A stretch of DNA of 64,000 nucleotides from NCBI RefSeq assembly GCF_030332225.1, contig NZ_JAOWIF010000040.1, forward strand, positions 186,001 to 250,000, read 5' to 3'. This DNA comes from Citrobacter sp. Cu233 (lineage in GTDB: Bacteria > Pseudomonadota > Gammaproteobacteria > Enterobacterales > Enterobacteriaceae). Within the stretch, counting starts at the first letter, position 1. Every line of letters begins with the position of its first letter. A program made the translations under genes and the position numbers. Shown piece after piece: positions 3,146 through 52,124 of this stretch. The notes below the pieces were generated by a model. That model did no database searches, had not been told where the DNA came from, and was given only the letters and a program-made list of their open reading frames with translations.

Positions 3146-3379
3146 TTTAACCGGGCTGGCTCCCCAACCAGCCATGTTAATCCGTTACATTGTCACAAAA
3201 ACTGTTTGCAGAATAAGCATAAGGATGCCGCTTGAATCAGTTCCACACTTTTTGTGTGGCTGTGAACGGCCTCCCTCCCTATAATCCCCCCGGTCCTGAA
3301 ACCATGGGGGTTTTGGGGATAGTTCAGAAAACAACTCTTTCCGGCATTTCAGGTGCTGAATGAGGCAAGAGGCTACAAT
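3146..3379 (+). promoter_or_regulatory. rstA-symporter intergenic region with a consensus -10 and a C/G hairpin
   Basis: This spacer has no gene. It holds a perfect TATAAT at 3280-3285, preceded by CTCCC and followed by six C residues. This resembles the -10/GC-rich discriminator arrangement of stable-RNA promoters. A clear -35 at 17 bp is not visible. Immediately after, CCCCC..GGT (3287-3294) can pair with ACC..GGGGG (3301-3310), followed by TTTT. It is the likely promoter region of the downstream symporter; the promoter call is inference. Confidence 0.4.
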
Positions 3380-4735
3380 ATGTTCGTTACTCTCGCGTAT
3401 ATCGCGATTTTTTTGGTTTGTTCATGGGCAATTTTCAGAATTCATCAAAAAAGCCATTCCCTTTCTAAAAGCGTCTTTATAGCCATTTTCTTGGGCGCTG
3501 TCATTGGCATGTCTCTACATCTGGTTGCCGCCGACAATAGTAAAATAGTCATCGACTGGTATAACATTATTGGCAATGGCTATGTGAACTTGCTGAAATT
3601 GGTTGCCGTTCCGCTGATTTTTATCTCGATTCTCTCCGCCATCAATAAACTCGAAAACAACGCAGGTATTGGTAAAATGTCGCTAACCATCGTTGGCTGC
3701 ATGCTGTGTCTGGTGATGATTGCTGGGTTTATTGGGCTACTCACAGCGCATGTGTTAGGTCTCGATGCCAGTGCATTTAGTCATATGCAATCAACGCTGA
3801 CAGCGGATGATGTGAGCAAAACCACGGCAATTTCCCTGCCTAAACTGATTACATCGTTAATCCCCACCAATGTTTTTCTCGATTTAACAGGAGCAAGAAG
3901 CGTCTCTGTTATTGGTATCGTGATCTTCACTCTTCTGGCCGGTATTGCATTATTAAAAGTTAAACAAGACGCGCCAGAAGACGGGAAGAAATTAAGCGTG
4001 GGAATTAATGCCATCCAGATTTGGGTGATGAAAATGGTGCGTATCGTTATTGCTCTCACACCCTACGGCGTGATGGCATTAATGGCCGGTGTATTCTCCG
4101 CATATCGGTTGGAACAGTTCGCTAGCCTGTTAGGTTTTATTGCTGCCTGTTATATCGCGATCTTAATGATGTTTATCGTGCATGCGCTGATACTGGTATT
4201 CAGCGGCAATAATCCCATTAACTATTTTAAAACCGTCTGGCCAGTATTAACCTTTGCATTTGTGTCACGCAGCAGCGCTGCATCGATCCCGCTGGCTATT
4301 TCAGCACAGGAAAAAATGGGGGTACAAAGTACCATAGCCAACATCGCGGCTTCATTTGGCTCCAGCATGGGACAAAATGGTTGCGCCGGGATCTATCCTG
4401 CCATCATGGTGGCAATGATTGCGCCGACAATGGGCATTGACCCGCTTTCAATCCACTTTCTCCTCGCCATGTTACCTGCAATTGCGCTGGGGTCTATCGG
4501 TGTTGCCGGCGTTGGTGGAGGCGGCACATTTGCCGCGTTGATTGTTCTTTCAACCCTTAATTTCCCGGTGGCGCTGGTGGGGATTTTTATCGCCATTGAA
4601 CCGATTGTCGATATGGCGCGAACGGCATTAAATGTGAACGGCTCTATGATGTCTGGCGTGGTGGCCAACCGGATGTTGAACAAGCGCATAGTGGGTTCAC
4701 AATGTGCAAATTCAAATGAGTTAGTAGACCACTAA
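3380..4735 (+). CDS. TcyP/YdjN-like dicarboxylate/amino acid:cation symporter (DAACS, SDF family)
   Basis: A 451-residue inner-membrane protein of the sodium:dicarboxylate symporter family, closest in my reading to the L-cystine importer TcyP (YdjN). It shares the serine-rich hairpin motif SRSSAASIPL (296-305), the GQNGCAGIYP block (331-340), the GVAGVGGGGTFAALI loop, and EPIVDMARTALNVNGS in the last helix. The ATG at 3380 is chosen because AAGAGG sits 7 bp upstream; a GTG at 3353 would add nine unconserved residues. It differs enough from TcyP that cystine specificity is an inference. It is the first gene of the block inserted between rstA and rstB and ends at a strong bidirectional terminator. 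Confidence 0.85.
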   Translation: MFVTLAYIAIFLVCSWAIFRIHQKSHSLSKSVFIAIFLGAVIGMSLHLVAADNSKIVIDWYNIIGNGYVNLLKLVAVPLIFISILSAINKLENNAGIGKMSLTIVGCMLCLVMIAGFIGLLTAHVLGLDASAFSHMQSTLTADDVSKTTAISLPKLITSLIPTNVFLDLTGARSVSVIGIVIFTLLAGIALLKVKQDAPEDGKKLSVGINAIQIWVMKMVRIVIALTPYGVMALMAGVFSAYRLEQFASLLGFIAACYIAILMMFIVHALILVFSGNNPINYFKTVWPVLTFAFVSRSSAASIPLAISAQEKMGVQSTIANIAASFGSSMGQNGCAGIYPAIMVAMIAPTMGIDPLSIHFLLAMLPAIALGSIGVAGVGGGGTFAALIVLSTLNFPVALVGIFIAIEPIVDMARTALNVNGSMMSGVVANRMLNKRIVGSQCANSNELVDH

Positions 4736-4742
4736 TAAGATC

Positions 4743-4772
4743 AAAGCCTTCCTTATCACGGAAGGCTTTTTT
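4743..4772. terminator. Bidirectional intrinsic terminator between symporter and NiCoT genes
   Basis: AAAGCCTTCC (4743-4752) pairs with GGAAGGCTTT (4760-4769) around a 7-nt loop, with T residues on the right and A residues on the left. It serves both convergent genes. Confidence 0.88.
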
Positions 4773-4775
4773 ATG

Positions 4776-5804
4776 TTAACCGAACGTCAGACCGTCATAT
4801 TTTTTCCAGCGGTAGTTCAACGCGGAAATAATCCAACAGGCAATAAAGACACCAATAATGGCAAACCCGACGTTGCCCATGTGGTCACTTAAGTTACTGA
4901 CCGTGTCCCACAACCCGCCCTGTAACGAAAACGCATCAGACAGCAGGCTCAATCCCTCCAGTCCGCCAATAAACAGCGCCACAATCACTGAGGTTCCGGT
5001 AATGGTCATATTGTAATACAGCTTACGTTGTGGCTTATTGAATGCCCAACCGTAGGCCTCAACCATCAGAATACTGTCGAGACAATCAATCAGCGCCATA
5101 CCGCAGGTAAACAGCGCAGGGAATACTAAAATGGACCAGACAGACATCCCGTTGGAGGCGCTTGAAGCCGATATGCCCAATAACGAGATTTCAGTCGCGG
5201 TGTCAAAGCCCAGGCCAAATAAGAAACCAACAAAATACATGTGCCAGTCTTTCCCAACCAACCTGAAGGCTGAGCGGAATAGCCAACTCAGCGGACCTGA
5301 AACCGTGACATCTTCCGTGGAGAGATCATAAATACCGGTACGTTTCAGATGGCGGAACGCCTTCCAGACCTGACAGAAAATAATGAGGTTGATGGTAGCC
5401 AGAATCAGCAGAAATGCGGCAGAAACGGAGGTTCCGATAATTCCACCAATATTCTGAAACCATATCATATGCTGCTTAAACGCGCTGGTGGTCAGAGCAA
5501 TACCAATGCTTGCCAGCACGACGATGGTAGAGTGCCCCAGAGAAAACCATGCCCCCGTCGTCAGTGCACGTTTGTTTTGCTGCATGAGCTTTCGCGTCGC
5601 ACTATCTATGGCAGCAATATGATCGGCATCGACTGCATGACGCAAACCATAGCACCACGCGATCAGGCTCAGCGCCAGAAGTGACGTATTATGACTAAAC
5701 GCGGCGAATGCCCAAAACCAGGCGACGATGTTTGCTCCGATGAGAAAAACCACCAGCAATATGAGGTTTGGCCGTTTTTTTATTAATGAAAACCACGAAG
5801 TCAT
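4776..5804 (-). CDS. NiCoT-family nickel/cobalt permease
   Basis: A 342-residue inner-membrane transporter with about eight helices. It carries the NiCoT signature RHAVDADHI in helix II (His56, Asp59, Asp61, His62), the second motif LGHSTIVV (89-96) and GLGFDTATE (197-205), all intact. Family members import Ni2+ and/or Co2+ at high affinity for enzymes such as urease, hydrogenase or cobalamin synthesis; which ion is used cannot be read from the sequence. The ATG at 5804 has CCGGAAAT just upstream. The E. coli K-12 rst locus lacks this gene. No nik, hyp or cob gene lies nearby, so it is a stand-alone acquisition in this window. Upstream are two AACGTTTA motifs that may be operator-like. Confidence 0.9.
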   Translation of the reverse strand: MTSWFSLIKKRPNLILLVVFLIGANIVAWFWAFAAFSHNTSLLALSLIAWCYGLRHAVDADHIAAIDSATRKLMQQNKRALTTGAWFSLGHSTIVVLASIGIALTTSAFKQHMIWFQNIGGIIGTSVSAAFLLILATINLIIFCQVWKAFRHLKRTGIYDLSTEDVTVSGPLSWLFRSAFRLVGKDWHMYFVGFLFGLGFDTATEISLLGISASSASNGMSVWSILVFPALFTCGMALIDCLDSILMVEAYGWAFNKPQRKLYYNMTITGTSVIVALFIGGLEGLSLLSDAFSLQGGLWDTVSNLSDHMGNVGFAIIGVFIACWIISALNYRWKKYDGLTFG

Positions 5805-5925
5805 TATTTCCGGCCCACTCGTTTTGTAATAAACAACACAACATCACCGCCGTTCACTGATAGATTAATAAAACGTTTACCAGCCTAATGATAACGTTTA
5901 AGAATTACCAGCCCCGTGTCTTAGA

Positions 5926-6767
5926 TCAACATTGCCTGCTCTCTTCGTCCAGTTCAGCAATCGCTAACTCCGCGACACGCAAGGTTATCGCCGCATTTTC
6001 CCCATCCTCCAGAAACCATGCAGAAGATAAACCGCACCATGCAGCTATCCACATCAGCAGCCGCTGTCGTTCAATCCCGGCTATCTCAGAGACAAGTTGC
6101 ACGCGTTGCTTAAAAATATTTGGGTCTGTCGCGATAGCAACACGGGGATCGGCAAGGTCAGGATTCGTGAATATATTGGCATAATCAAACCCTCGCTCAC
6201 CCAGTAGCCCCTTGGGATCAATTGCCAGCCATCCTGCCGGACCAAAATCGAGGACATTGCCGTGGTGTAAGTCACCATGCAATACGACGTCATCCTGAGG
6301 AGAAGAGAACAATTGGTTTGCGATCTCTGCGCAGCGCCTCATGACTCCACCATAAATTTTCGCCGCAGGGGCAAGATTGCGAAACCAGTGCCGCAGCGGC
6401 GTTAATACCGGTGTAGACGCATTTGCAGGCCGATGGAGCTGTCGGCGGTATTGCAAAGAATGCGGCATGCCAGCCCATCCTCCCCCGTTCTGGACATCGC
6501 GGATAACGAATCCGCTCCTGTGGCGCGTACCAGCAAGGTCGCGCCATTATCATGAGCCATCACTTGCGCCGCACCGCTGCCATTCCACCACACCATAAGC
6601 TCACCACCAGTACGCTCATTTTCATCATCAGTAAGCTTAAGCATGGCTTTCCGGCCCTCTTTAATTGTGGCAACAGGTAATAGCGTTGATGTTCGCGTCA
6701 TAACCGGATTGCCGTCAGGAATAAGCGCCCATTGGCGAAGCCAGGTTTGAAACATGCATTTTTCCAA
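5926..6767 (-). pseudogene. Frameshifted APH(6)-type (streptomycin phosphotransferase-like) gene
   Basis: Two overlapping frames together read like one APH(6) protein of about 280 residues. The upstream frame (6767 to about 6445) gives the N-lobe (..AMLKLTDDENERTGGELMVWW..ACRILCNTA). The downstream frame (about 6450 to 5926) gives the C-lobe with the kinase Brenner-type motif LHGDLHHGNVLDFG, AIDPKGLLGERGFDYANIF and the tail WCGLSSAWFLEDGE. The reading switches near 6440-6450 and is consistent with loss of one base, after which the upstream frame soon stops. Intact homologues phosphorylate streptomycin at O-6. As written the gene would give no full-length enzyme. A sequencing error is the main alternative. 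The start may be 6767 or the internal ATG at 6755. Confidence 0.82.
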
Positions 6768-6802
6768 TGTATTCCCTCATGCTAGCCAGGAGGCTGCGCT
6801 CT

Positions 6803-6830
6803 TTTGCTGAATCGATTCTTGTAGTAATAT
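6803..6830 (+). promoter_or_regulatory. Probable promoter of the fluoride riboswitch-clcF transcript
   Basis: TAATAT at 6825-6830 is a good -10, with a TTTTGC/TTGCTG -35 region near 6802-6809 at 15-17 bp. Transcription would begin at about 6836-6838, directly at the first base of the aptamer. Confidence 0.5.
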
Positions 6831-6836
6831 AGCACA

Positions 6837-6914
6837 CAGGGGATGGCATTCCCCCTTGAACCGCCATGTGGCTAATGATGCCTGCTTTATATTCCCGGAC
6901 CGGGAAGAAGCAGG
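6837..6914 (+). promoter_or_regulatory. Fluoride riboswitch (crcB motif) with downstream switching hairpin
   Basis: The core reads as the known fluoride aptamer. P1 is GGGG (6839-6842) with CCCC (6851-6855), enclosing ATGGCATT. The conserved AACCGCC (6859-6865) forms a stem GCC/GGC around ATGT. The conserved GGCTAATGATGCC follows (6870-6882), where ATGCC (6878-6882) pairs with GGCAT (6845-6849) as the characteristic pseudoknot. Its 3' edge CCTGCTT (6881-6887) is complementary to AAGCAGG (6908-6914), enclosing TTCCC/GGGAA, so the aptamer and this long hairpin exclude one another. A T5 tract follows at 6922-6926, fitting a terminator-type platform. It lies directly before a CLC-F gene, the classical target. 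Confidence 0.9.
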
Positions 6915-6978
6915 TGTACGTATTTTTAGCCATGCTGCGCTGTGTGTCCGGGATGATAATTCATCAGAGGATGCGTCA

Positions 6979-8271
6979 ATGCGCTCAAATCACTTTCTGC
7001 TCAATAATTCAATAACTGCACTCGGGCAATGGCTTGCCCTTGCTTTTCTCATCGCCGTACTAACCGGTACAGCTTCTGCATTATTCCTGTTTTCTCTTGA
7101 CTGGGCCACCACGACCCGAGTCAACCACCATTGGCTTATCTGGTTACTTCCTGTCGCCGGTTTCATTGTAGGATGGATTTATCTGTTGTACGGAAGCGCC
7201 GTTGAAGGTGGCAATAACCTCGTTCTTGATGAAATCCACCATCCTCACAGCATCATCCGCCTACGCATGGCGCCGCTGGTATTTATCAGCACCGTGATTT
7301 CTCATCTGTTTGGTGCCTCTGTCGGGCGTGAAGGAACGGCAGTACAAATGGGTGCATCCATCGCCGATCAGTTTACGCGTCTTTTTAGACTGACACCTGA
7401 CTCCCGGCGTCTTGTTCTGATGGCGGGCATCAGCGCGGGGTTTTCATCCGTATTTGGCACCCCGCTGGCAGGTGCAGTCTTTGGCCTTGAGGTGCTGGCG
7501 ATCGGCCGCATGAATTACAATGCGCTTATTCCCTGTATTTTTGCGGCTATCATCGCCGATCAGACAGGTTTGTTGTGGGGTGTGAAGCATACACATTACG
7601 TCATCTCTCAGGTCCCTGATTTCTCCGCATGGACACTGATTGCCGTTATTATCGCCGGTTGCTGCTTTGGTTTTACCGCGCGGGTCTTCGCTAACCTCAC
7701 GCATACTATCGGTAGCATTATGCAACGAACCTTTCGTTACGCACCGCTCAGGCCGTTCATTGGGGGACTTGTCGTGGCCGTCGCGGTGTATTTTTTAGCT
7801 GCAGATCGCTATATCGGCCTCGGCATTCCGGTGATCGTGGATGCTTTCCAGCAACAGCTGGCCCCCTGGGATTTTCTGGGCAAACTGGTATTTACCGCGG
7901 TCTCACTGGGCACAGGTTTTAAAGGAGGGGAAGTCACCCCGCTTTTTTATATTGGGGCCACCCTGGGCAATGCACTTGCACCATTACTGCATTTACCCGT
8001 CAGTTTCCTTGCGGGTATGGGGTTTGTCGCTGTCTTTGCCGGGGCCGCAAATACACCTGTCGCTTCAACACTGATGGCCATTGAGTTATTTGGATCAGAA
8101 ACGGGAATTTATGCCGCACTGGCCTGCGCGGTTGCCTGGCTGATATCTGGCTATACCAGTATTTATCGTTCTCAGCGTGTTGCCTGCCCGAAACACGGTT
8201 TTGTCCCGGAGAACATTAAACTGGCGGATATACCGGCTTTCCTCGCGGCAAATACCCGCAAACAGGATTAA
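6979..8271 (+). CDS. CLC-F type fluoride/proton antiporter (EriC-F)
   Basis: A 431-residue inner-membrane CLC protein that should expel F- in exchange for H+. It differs from chloride CLCs where the fluoride clade does: the first filter loop reads GGNNL (77-81) instead of GSGIP. The gating-glutamate motif is GREGT (116-120, Glu118) rather than GREGP, and the later filter loop is GGEVTPLF (316-323). There is no CBS domain. The ATG at 6979 is preferred because AGAGG (6966-6970) lies 8 bp upstream; a longer frame from 6856 would begin inside the riboswitch and is not credible. Control by the fluoride riboswitch supports the substrate. It is unrelated to rstAB although it sits between those genes. 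Confidence 0.9.
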   Translation: MRSNHFLLNNSITALGQWLALAFLIAVLTGTASALFLFSLDWATTTRVNHHWLIWLLPVAGFIVGWIYLLYGSAVEGGNNLVLDEIHHPHSIIRLRMAPLVFISTVISHLFGASVGREGTAVQMGASIADQFTRLFRLTPDSRRLVLMAGISAGFSSVFGTPLAGAVFGLEVLAIGRMNYNALIPCIFAAIIADQTGLLWGVKHTHYVISQVPDFSAWTLIAVIIAGCCFGFTARVFANLTHTIGSIMQRTFRYAPLRPFIGGLVVAVAVYFLAADRYIGLGIPVIVDAFQQQLAPWDFLGKLVFTAVSLGTGFKGGEVTPLFYIGATLGNALAPLLHLPVSFLAGMGFVAVFAGAANTPVASTLMAIELFGSETGIYAALACAVAWLISGYTSIYRSQRVACPKHGFVPENIKLADIPAFLAANTRKQD

Positions 8272-8648
8272 ATCATTTGGATAGATAAAGAATTCTAAAT
8301 ACACCCGTTTATATAAATGGTTTATCTTTTGAACCGGCGCAGGATATCGCTATTTTTTCGGCGGGTAGTGTTGTTGTATAAATCGAAATTTTCCCCTGGT
8401 GTAGGCTCAGGTAAGCTATTGAGTGACTGGTCTGCGTAGAGTTATACCCATTAAATGACGCTCCTGTATAGTCGCCTGGTAGCTCATAAGAATGCAGAAA
8501 TGGTTTATACCGTGTAATCTGCCAGGATAAGTGCGTTGATGGTGGTCGGATTGATATTCACCCTGTGCGCCAGTGGATACGGGATACCGTCCACCTGCTC
8601 CGGGGGCAACTGCACATTAGCTAACCTATTAAGTGTTCGGTGGTTTGT
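8272..8648 (+). other. 377-bp spacer between clcF and rstB
   Basis: No recognised gene is present apart from the small overlapping frame at 8539-8652. Two GGTTTA half-site-like motifs occur (8319-8324, 8502-8507), the latter followed by TGTAAT (8513-8518), but neither forms an 11-bp-spaced PhoP direct repeat. Since rstA is far upstream and separated by a convergent gene, rstB should have its own promoter here. Confidence 0.5.
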
Positions 8649-51728: not shown

Positions 51729-51737
51729 GGGGGGAAA

Positions 51738-51827
51738 TCAGTGCAGTGCTGCAGTCAGGCCACCCGCGACAATCAGGCCCAGAACAATTATGGTTGTCAC
51801 TAACGAAAATTTCAGATCGGTGCTCAT
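51738..51827 (-). CDS. ynhF: Small membrane protein YnhF
   Basis: A 29-codon gene encoding MSTDLKFSLVTTIIVLGL and a Gly/Ala-rich end. It is a single transmembrane helix, essentially identical to E. coli YnhF, and lies between ydhP and purR as there. AGGAGAAAAC precedes the start. Expression in E. coli is stress-related; molecular role unknown. Confidence 0.92.
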   Translation of the reverse strand: MSTDLKFSLVTTIIVLGLIVAGGLTAALH

Positions 51828-52064
51828 CAAGTTTTCTCCTTTTTATTCCCACACAAAAAGTGATATTGCGCATTTTTACACACTTGAAAGCAAAAATCTC
51901 TCACGATTTATATTGATAACTGCTTTTAACTCTTCCCCTTTTCGTTAAGATCAGACAAAATTCCACGCTTACTTGATTAGCGTACCGGCCATTGACCCCT
52001 TCCTGACGTTCCGTGTCGTTTTCCCGGCGTGCCGCAACCCCGACGTTGCGTTGAGGGTGTGTGA

Positions 52065-52080
52065 AGGCAAACGTTTACCT
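52065..52080. promoter_or_regulatory. PurR operator O1 upstream of purR
   Basis: AGGCAAACGTTTACCT matches the PurR box (ACGCAAACGTTTGCGT) around the central CAAACGTTT and lies 45 bp before the purR ATG, as in E. coli autoregulation. Confidence 0.88.
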
Positions 52081-52124
52081 GGAGTATTCTCAGGAGCTTA
52101 GGATATGGTCTGGAGTGAGATGTA

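What the first reader, a model, noticed from the sequence alone, without database searches (positions are those of the whole stretch)
6837..8271. Fluoride riboswitch controlling a CLC-F antiporter inserted in the rst locus
The aptamer core is readable by eye (P1 GGGG/CCCC, AACCGCC with GCC/GGC stem, GGCTAATGATGCC, GGCAT/ATGCC pseudoknot) and starts where a TAATAT -10 predicts transcription to begin. The gene has GREGT and GGNNL in place of the chloride CLC motifs GREGP and GSGIP. Together they form a self-contained fluoride-resistance cassette. Many enterobacteria use CrcB instead, so this is likely a strain- or clade-specific acquisition.
Basis: partly seen in the sequence, partly recalled or inferred. 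Interest (0 to 1): 0.72.

Follow-up and report, generated by a model that had tools for sequence, protein, structure and literature searches.

The report
Fluoride switch before a fluoride exporter
This stretch of a Citrobacter chromosome carries a well-known kind of RNA sensor for fluoride in front of a fluoride pump; the kind is ordinary, but the RNA probably works by opening the gene's ribosome site through a chain of swapping helices, and some relatives carry decayed traces of the same gene.

Summary
Rfam RF01734 scores 55.7 bits (gathering 34) at 6830-6891, the only match in the genome. The gene (ATG 6979-8271, 430 aa) carries the published CLC-F signatures, matches the solved CLC-F antiporter far better than ClcA, and branches away from the genome's chloride CLCs. 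Corrections: the genome also has CrcB, and a plain strain-specific arrival is too simple. Of 16 genus relatives, one keeps codons 1-127 and three carry short decayed CLC-F pieces at the same spot; 12 show no trace. An older acquisition with losses fits best. The nickel permease and APH(6)-like neighbours are older in this locus. I add a likely mechanism: in the window no U-run directly follows the leader hairpin; instead three mutually exclusive helices link the fluoride pseudoknot to the Shine-Dalgarno site. Support is good in the window's clade and several diverged leaders, absent in others, and the L108 type also has a U-rich tract. New member of a known kind; the relay is computed and needs a bench test.

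The parts
6801..6837 (+). left end of the shared cassette, presumed promoter region
   Evidence: blastn homology to G271, L022 and L024 starts at 6801 in all three, to G377 at 6802, with unlike DNA upstream; 0 sigma-70 matches by the scan
6830..6891 (+). fluoride riboswitch aptamer, RF01734 (P1 6839-6842/6852-6855; pseudoknot 6845-6849/6878-6882; P3 6863-6865/6870-6872)
   Evidence: cmscan 55.7 bits, gathering 34; coordinates of motifs
6880..6915 (+). hairpin A; its 5' foot GCC belongs to the 3' strand of the fluoride pseudoknot
   Evidence: 140 of 140 cells paired in 10 aligned leaders, 4 of 14 pairs with changes on both sides
6893..6900 (+). helix B, 5' arm UCCCGGAC (lies inside hairpin A)
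   Evidence: 98.8% of 80 cells paired, one pair C-G to U-A in 4 of 10 rows
6946..6953 (+). helix B, 3' arm GUCCGGGA (overlaps helix C 5' arm)
   Evidence: joint score of B and C against shuffles p 0.011 for the window leader
6942..6949 (+). helix C, 5' arm (anti-Shine-Dalgarno)
6966..6976 (+). Shine-Dalgarno region AGAGGA (6966-6971) and helix C 3' arm GGATGCGT (6969-6976)
6979..8271 (+). CLC-F type fluoride/proton antiporter gene, 430 aa
   Evidence: PF00654 255.6 bits; PDB 6d0j E 2.2e-62 against ClcA 4.2e-9; three CLC-F signatures; tree

Best explanation
A fluoride-activated gene for a fluoride exporter. Shown by computation: an aptamer of the fluoride riboswitch family lies directly upstream of a CLC-F antiporter. 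Inferred: without fluoride, the 3' strand of the pseudoknot (AUGCC) is drawn into hairpin A, and the Shine-Dalgarno region is closed by helix C. With fluoride, the pseudoknot holds AUGCC, hairpin A loses its foot, its arm UCCCGGAC pairs with GUCCGGGA (helix B) before the Shine-Dalgarno is transcribed, helix C cannot form, and the antiporter is translated and exports fluoride in exchange for protons. Control is thus mainly on translation, decided during transcription.
For: Aptamer. Exporter. No U-run directly after hairpin A in the window: 3 T in the next 8 nt. Hairpin A covaries. B and C together beat dinucleotide shuffles at p <= 0.02 in 16 of 21 CLC-F leaders tested; after clustering, in 3 of 8 clusters, pooled Fisher p 1e-4. 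The Shine-Dalgarno of the window costs 8.2 kcal/mol to open in the free leader, against a shuffle mean of 4.5, and 5.1 with the pseudoknot strands held. With the RNA cut before the 3' arm of helix C, helix B makes up 0.985 of the window's bound ensemble and is 6.0 kcal/mol disfavoured in the free one.
Against: At full length helix B is not the computed optimum even in the bound state (penalty 3.8 kcal/mol in the window), so the model needs cotranscriptional order. The drop in opening cost is matched by 5 of 40 shuffles for the window; it is 0.35 or less in G377, G157, L112 and L121 and reversed in G318. Five CLC-F leaders (G124, G230, G027, L112, L121) give p 0.12 to 0.69, L119 has no hairpin A, and the cluster of crcB and pyrophosphatase leaders has median p 0.15. 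Helix C shows little covariation. Helix B has one two-sided pair, a number that 466 of 500 column shuffles reach (its score and cell counts are reached by 3 of 500), and none in the second alignment. A U-rich tract does follow hairpin A in L022 (5 T of 8) and in the L108 type (6, 5, 5 T of 8), so termination may contribute there. Nothing was measured.
Confidence: 0.75

Rival explanations
1. The same fluoride riboswitch works by intrinsic termination: hairpin A is a terminator stem (as P4 in the Bacillus cereus and Thermotoga petrophila switches) and fluoride prevents it.
For: Hairpin A reuses the pseudoknot strand as P4 does in the published transcriptional switches (PMC13273304, sections 33 and 35). 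In the window a run of five T starts 7 bases after the stem. L022 and the L108-type leaders have 5 or 6 T in the 8 nt after the stem.
Against: In the window only 3 of those 8 nt are T, in the four leaders of the G377 type 1 or 2, with ACACCTCTATCG after the stem in G377; the scan does not list the hairpin as a terminator; the Shine-Dalgarno pairing would be unexplained.
Confidence: 0.15
2. The closed ribosome site acts mainly through Rho-dependent termination or decay of the untranslated message rather than on translation as such.
For: Known for other riboswitches that close the ribosome site (recalled; a title to that effect stands in the reference list shown). It would use the same helices.
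Against: No sequence evidence for or against was sought here.
Confidence: 0.1
3. The protein is an ordinary chloride CLC and the riboswitch link is fortuitous.
For: It belongs to PF00654, and NCBIfam gives only sub-threshold ClcA/ClcB-type matches.
Against: CLC-F signatures; 6d0j ahead of ClcA by 175 bits; the 23 CLC-F rows split from the 4 chloride CLC rows at 100/100; a fluoride riboswitch in 14 of 17 loci with a homologue that were scanned.
Confidence: 0.02
4. The cassette is a recent arrival in this lineage only, and the sister remnants come from a separate insertion.
For: Only 1 of 17 genus genomes has a whole copy; 12 of 16 relatives show no trace, G016 in the window's own clade among them; relatives at 85% lie on plasmids and on contigs of other genomes.
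Against: G010 has codons 1-127 at 97% in the same place; the remnants in G002, G003 and G008 lie beside the same neighbour, with a gap of 38 to 40 bases in place of the window's 293 to 300, and match the window (75-77%) better than G271, L022 or G377.
Confidence: 0.2

Closest known systems
Fluoride riboswitch of Pseudomonas syringae, a translational control in PMC13273304
   Same: fluoride aptamer; no fluoride-dependent termination was measured for it (passage seen)
   Different: I did not analyse that very sequence; the relay described here comes from other leaders, among them one from a Pseudomonas plasmid (L109)
Fluoride riboswitch of Bacillus cereus (transcriptional, PMC13273304)
   Same: aptamer, and a hairpin that takes over the pseudoknot strand (P4; here hairpin A)
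   Different: there the hairpin is a terminator with a U-run; in the window no U-run follows directly and the ribosome site is paired
Enterobacter cloacae FRM island GI3 (PMC5533749, passages seen)
   Same: riboswitch-controlled fluoride resistance in an enterobacterium, held to be horizontally acquired
   Different: six-gene operon with crcB, eno, gpmA, ppaC, uspA and orf5249; here a single CLC-F gene
CLC-type fluoride/proton antiporter of PDB 6d0j
   Same: same family and signatures, aligned over residues 12-402 of the window protein
   Different: GREGV in the solved protein, GREGT here (alignment)

Membership tests
Fluoride riboswitch RF01734 | covariance-model score at or above the gathering score | tested here: met
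   55.7 against 34 bits
Fluoride riboswitch RF01734 | pseudoknot between the P1 loop and the 3' end of the aptamer | tested here: met
   GGCAU 6845-6849 with AUGCC 6878-6882; all ten columns invariant in the 10 rows of A1
Fluoride riboswitch RF01734 | binds fluoride with Mg2+ | not testable with these tools
   needs in-line probing or similar
CLC-F antiporters | GNNLI/GMGLI, GREGT/V and GEVTP signatures (PMC11139923, passage) | tested here: met
   GNNL followed by V instead of I, GREGT, GEVTP; the genome's clcA-type protein has GSGIP and GREGP
CLC-F antiporters | places with CLC-F, not with chloride CLCs | tested here: met
   tree of 27 rows (6d0j itself and the fourth CLC of the genome are not in the tree) and PDB ranking
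CLC-F antiporters | fluoride-selective proton-coupled transport | not testable with these tools
   needs a transport assay
Translational expression platform | no intrinsic terminator; ribosome site paired in the free state and opened by the ligand | tested here: inconclusive
   the first two parts supported for the window, ligand-driven opening only in the cotranscriptional reading

The most novel reading that the evidence does not exclude
Many gamma- and betaproteobacterial fluoride riboswitches, in front of both CLC-F and crcB, share one translational relay that has not been laid out as such: pseudoknot strand, then an anti-aptamer hairpin, then an arm of that hairpin that captures the anti-Shine-Dalgarno strand before the Shine-Dalgarno emerges. 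The pairings are kept while their sequences turn over (CCCGGAC/GUCCGGG, CCUGGAC/GUCCAGG, CUGACC/GGUCAG, CUCAGAGAGGU/ACCUUUCUGAG), so one hairpin serves as terminator in some lineages and as relay in others, perhaps as both in some. (Odds lowered from 0.45 on re-checking, because the L108-type leaders have a U-rich tract after the hairpin.)
Probability: 0.4. Interest if true: 0.5.

Novelty: new member of a known kind. Interest (0 to 1): 0.33.

Why it matters
The pair itself is textbook. It matters in two modest ways. It gives a compact, testable model for how fluoride riboswitches without a terminator could control translation, where a 2026 study of 1901 fluoride riboswitches builds its full covariation model on the terminating kind (PMC13273304). 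And it shows a fluoride cassette apparently arriving and decaying at one chromosomal spot in a genus, while this genome keeps a CrcB elsewhere (PMC11139923 gives about 3% of surveyed strains with both exporters; passage).

Tried and rejected
Considered and rejected: chloride CLC; intrinsic terminator as the main device in the window; one recent island bringing the whole rstA-rstB gene block, because NicO is nearly whole in 15 of 16 genus relatives and a piece in the 16th, while CLC-F is not; a DUF190 partner in the window, best tblastn E 0.47. The class-level search gave only the window's own genome of 369 at E <= 1e-60 and so no further leaders. The genome-contig scan gave 5 loci. Phage records gave 15 with a match, all under 60% identity, not followed up.

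Literature. Searches that bear on novelty. By titles and abstract starts, none listed a paper on this locus; others (fluoride riboswitch with Citrobacter; anti-anti-Shine-Dalgarno with fluoride and riboswitch) returned 0 papers. The library holds open-licence papers only. Two founding papers (10.1126/science.1215063, 10.1073/pnas.1210896109) were not held. PMC8814607 says, citing them, that some fluoride riboswitches presumably act on translation (passage); I recall that the first already proposes ribosome-site control for P. syringae and could not check it. So the idea of translational control is not new; what I could not find is the relay. Papers seen: PMC13273304 outline, sections 33 and 35 and passages; PMC5533749, PMC11139923, PMC8814607, PMC7266159, PMC9495176 passages only.

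Rows left out before counts: L117 (no annotated start; my guess was not a start codon) and L118 (AT-rich, unlike leader); L119 had no hairpin A and so no p value. L120, L122 and L123 had no riboswitch above threshold and gave no leader. clusters by single linkage at 65% and takes the median p of each cluster; one large cluster mixes crcB, pyrophosphatase and one CLC-F leader (L114, which on its own has p 0.001). The per-kind lines printed at the end label a cluster by its first member and are not used. Crc B and pyrophosphatase starts were picked by a rule, not by annotation.

Full report
What is there. A scan of the whole window against Rfam gives two matches; one is the fluoride riboswitch RF01734 at 6830-6891 on the + strand, 55.7 bits against a gathering score of 34. 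It is the only match in the 4,790,910-base genome. Directly downstream an open frame runs from ATG 6979 to 8271, 430 aa, Pfam Voltage_CLC over residues 61-390. The published signatures of fluoride CLCs are GNNLI/GMGLI, GREGT/V and GEVTP (PMC11139923, passage); the protein has GNNL followed by V, GREGT and GEVTP, while one of the genome's other CLCs has GSGIP, GREGP and GGIFAP (the names clcA and clcB for the paralogues are recalled). The best solved relative is the CLC-type fluoride/proton antiporter 6d0j, E 2.2e-62, 214.8 bits, against 39.2 bits for ClcA. In a tree of 27 rows the 23 CLC-F rows are split from the 4 chloride CLC rows at 100/100; the outer branches are long and the place of some CLC-F rows is unsure. 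The genome holds four CLC genes and one crcB.

Where it lies. The genome belongs to the genus of G010; the contig of G010 that holds its CLC-F piece has 99,236 bases, as has the Citrobacter sp. wls619 contig of locus L027 with the same match. In the one E. coli genome looked at, rstA and rstB are neighbours. In the 17 genus genomes they are not. Among the 16 relatives, a NicO-type nickel/cobalt permease gene lies between them nearly whole in 15 and as a piece in 1, a dicarboxylate symporter gene in 8, and an APH(6)-like kinase gene, both parts, in 12 (matches over 55% identity). These neighbours are therefore older in the locus than the present gene. In the window the APH(6)-like gene is split between two frames; uninterrupted frames exist in relatives. 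I describe it only.

History of the cassette. Of 17 genus genomes only the window's has a whole CLC-F gene; G010 has codons 1-127 at 97% identity followed by other DNA. Three more, G002, G003 and G008, have 62-71 bp that match the window from 7074-7079 to 7140-7144 at 75-77%, just beyond the start of the APH(6)-like gene; the riboswitch and the start of the gene are missing there, with a gap of 38 to 40 bases. These pieces match the window's gene better than they match the 85% relatives G271 and L022 or the 74% relative G377. The other 12 relatives show no trace, G016 among them. In a tree of folM, rstA and rstB the window, G010 and G016 form one clade (100/100) beside a seven-genome clade (100/99) that holds all three remnants; the two together have 94/96, and the root is at the midpoint. 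The simplest account is one acquisition before that split and several losses. It rests on short remnants, so I give it about 0.8. In a wider family sample, 9 of 392 genomes, the window's own included, have such a CLC-F at E <= 1e-60, against 137 of 392 with the riboswitch at E <= 0.001 and 127 over the cut-off. One search returned loci for its 30 best-scoring matches; in the 29 other than the window's own, the first gene found downstream is crcB in 18, a pyrophosphatase in 4, CLC-F in 4, and none of the tested kinds in 3. On plasmids 117 of 72,556 records have a CLC-F match at E <= 1e-60. Homology of the leader with G271, L022 and L024 starts at base 6801 in all three although the DNA upstream is unlike, so a unit with its own promoter seems to move. 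In 9 of 13 plasmid loci where the CLC-F gene is annotated the next gene is DUF190 (L022, L108, L110, L112, L113, L115, L116, L122, L123; not L109, where it is the second next, nor L118, L119, L121); G271 and L024 have it too. The window lacks it, and its protein is 13 residues shorter than that of L022.

How it probably works. The leader, 141 bases from 6838 to the start codon, holds three helices that exclude each other. Hairpin A (6880-6915) starts with the GCC of the pseudoknot strand, so it and the fluoride-bound aptamer exclude each other; in an alignment of 10 leaders all 140 cells are paired and 4 of 14 pairs change on both sides, with 0 or 1 of 500 column shuffles reaching the paired percentage, covariation score and counts of two-sided change. 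Such a hairpin, called P4, is the terminator of the known transcriptional switches, and the authors of a study of 1901 fluoride riboswitches read their wider model as covering both kinds of platform (PMC13273304: outline, sections 33 and 35, and passages). In the window no U-run follows it directly: 3 T in the next 8 bases; the nine leaders of its cluster have 1 to 5, the 5 being L022. In the L108 type the tract is U-rich (6, 5 and 5 of 8 in L108, L115 and L116), so there a part for termination is open. Helix B pairs an arm of hairpin A (6893-6900) with 6946-6953; one pair changes from C-G to U-A in 4 of 10 rows, while in hairpin A the same change gives only U-G. Helix C pairs 6942-6949 with 6969-6976 and closes the Shine-Dalgarno region; in L108, L113, L115 and L116 it takes in the start codon as well. 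A search for B and C under fixed rules beat 1000 dinucleotide shuffles at p <= 0.02 in 16 of 21 CLC-F leaders, 0.011 for the window; the other five had p 0.12 to 0.69. These leaders are related to each other. With 43 of 44 CLC-F, crcB and pyrophosphatase leaders grouped into 8 clusters, 3 clusters have a median p <= 0.02 and the pooled Fisher p is 1e-4. Among crcB and pyrophosphatase leaders some have very long B helices, such as L058, L063 and L074 (p 0.005, 0.005, 0.010), and others show nothing; the cluster that holds most of them has a median p of 0.15. Covariation of helix C is weak in the window's alignment, and in a second alignment of six leaders neither B nor C has a two-sided change, though 100% and 95.8% of cells pair.

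Energies. The Shine-Dalgarno of the window costs 8.2 kcal/mol to open without constraint and 5.1 with the aptamer formed and the pseudoknot strands held; shuffles average 4.5 and 4.2, and 5 of 40 shuffles show as large a drop. The drop is positive in 20 of 21 leaders, but only 0.05 to 0.35 in G157, G377, L112 and L121, and it is reversed in G318. At full length helix B is 10.6 kcal/mol above the free ensemble and 3.8 above the bound one, so binding alone does not flip the finished RNA. If the RNA is cut before the 3' arm of helix C exists, B makes up 0.985 of the window's bound ensemble and is 6.0 kcal/mol disfavoured in the free one; over the 16 leaders so tested the bound fraction is 0.53 to 0.99 and the free penalty 0.1 to 7.9, so the contrast is weak in L110, L114 and the L108 type. 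I therefore propose a decision made during transcription. These are nearest-neighbour computations with the pseudoknot imposed by hand.

Verdict. The finding is real and correctly named. It is a new member of a known kind. The one part that could interest a specialist is the translational relay, which I rate as likely but unproven in the window (about 0.65) and less sure as a general scheme not yet laid out (0.40, lowered from 0.45 on re-checking because of the U-rich tract in the L108 type).

Noticed in passing
window 5926-6767, minus strand: APH(6)-like aminoglycoside kinase gene split between two frames in the window; uninterrupted in relatives G010 and G016. Described only.
   Followed up: partly
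window 3146-8639: rstA and rstB, adjacent in the one E. coli genome looked at, are separated in all 17 genus genomes, by about 1.8 kb in G006 and more in the others; this may part rstB from the rstA promoter.
   Followed up: partly
L084 9674-12260 (G010): In G010 the CLC-F gene stops after codon 127 and is followed by an outer-membrane beta-barrel gene (Ail/Lom match) and a PhzF-like gene, so the spot beside the APH(6)-like gene seems to turn over.
   Followed up: partly
L022: A Klebsiella pneumoniae plasmid carries the 85% relative between a Tn3 transposase/recombinase pair and heat-resistance genes, and a second place with gene and leader elsewhere on the same plasmid.
   Followed up: no
L048, L049, L059: Fluoride riboswitches with none of the tested genes (crcB, CLC-F, pyrophosphatase, DUF190, eno, usp) downstream in the fetched stretch; the genes were not identified.
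   Followed up: no
window 51735-52124, minus strand: STnc550 sRNA match, 439 bits.
   Followed up: no
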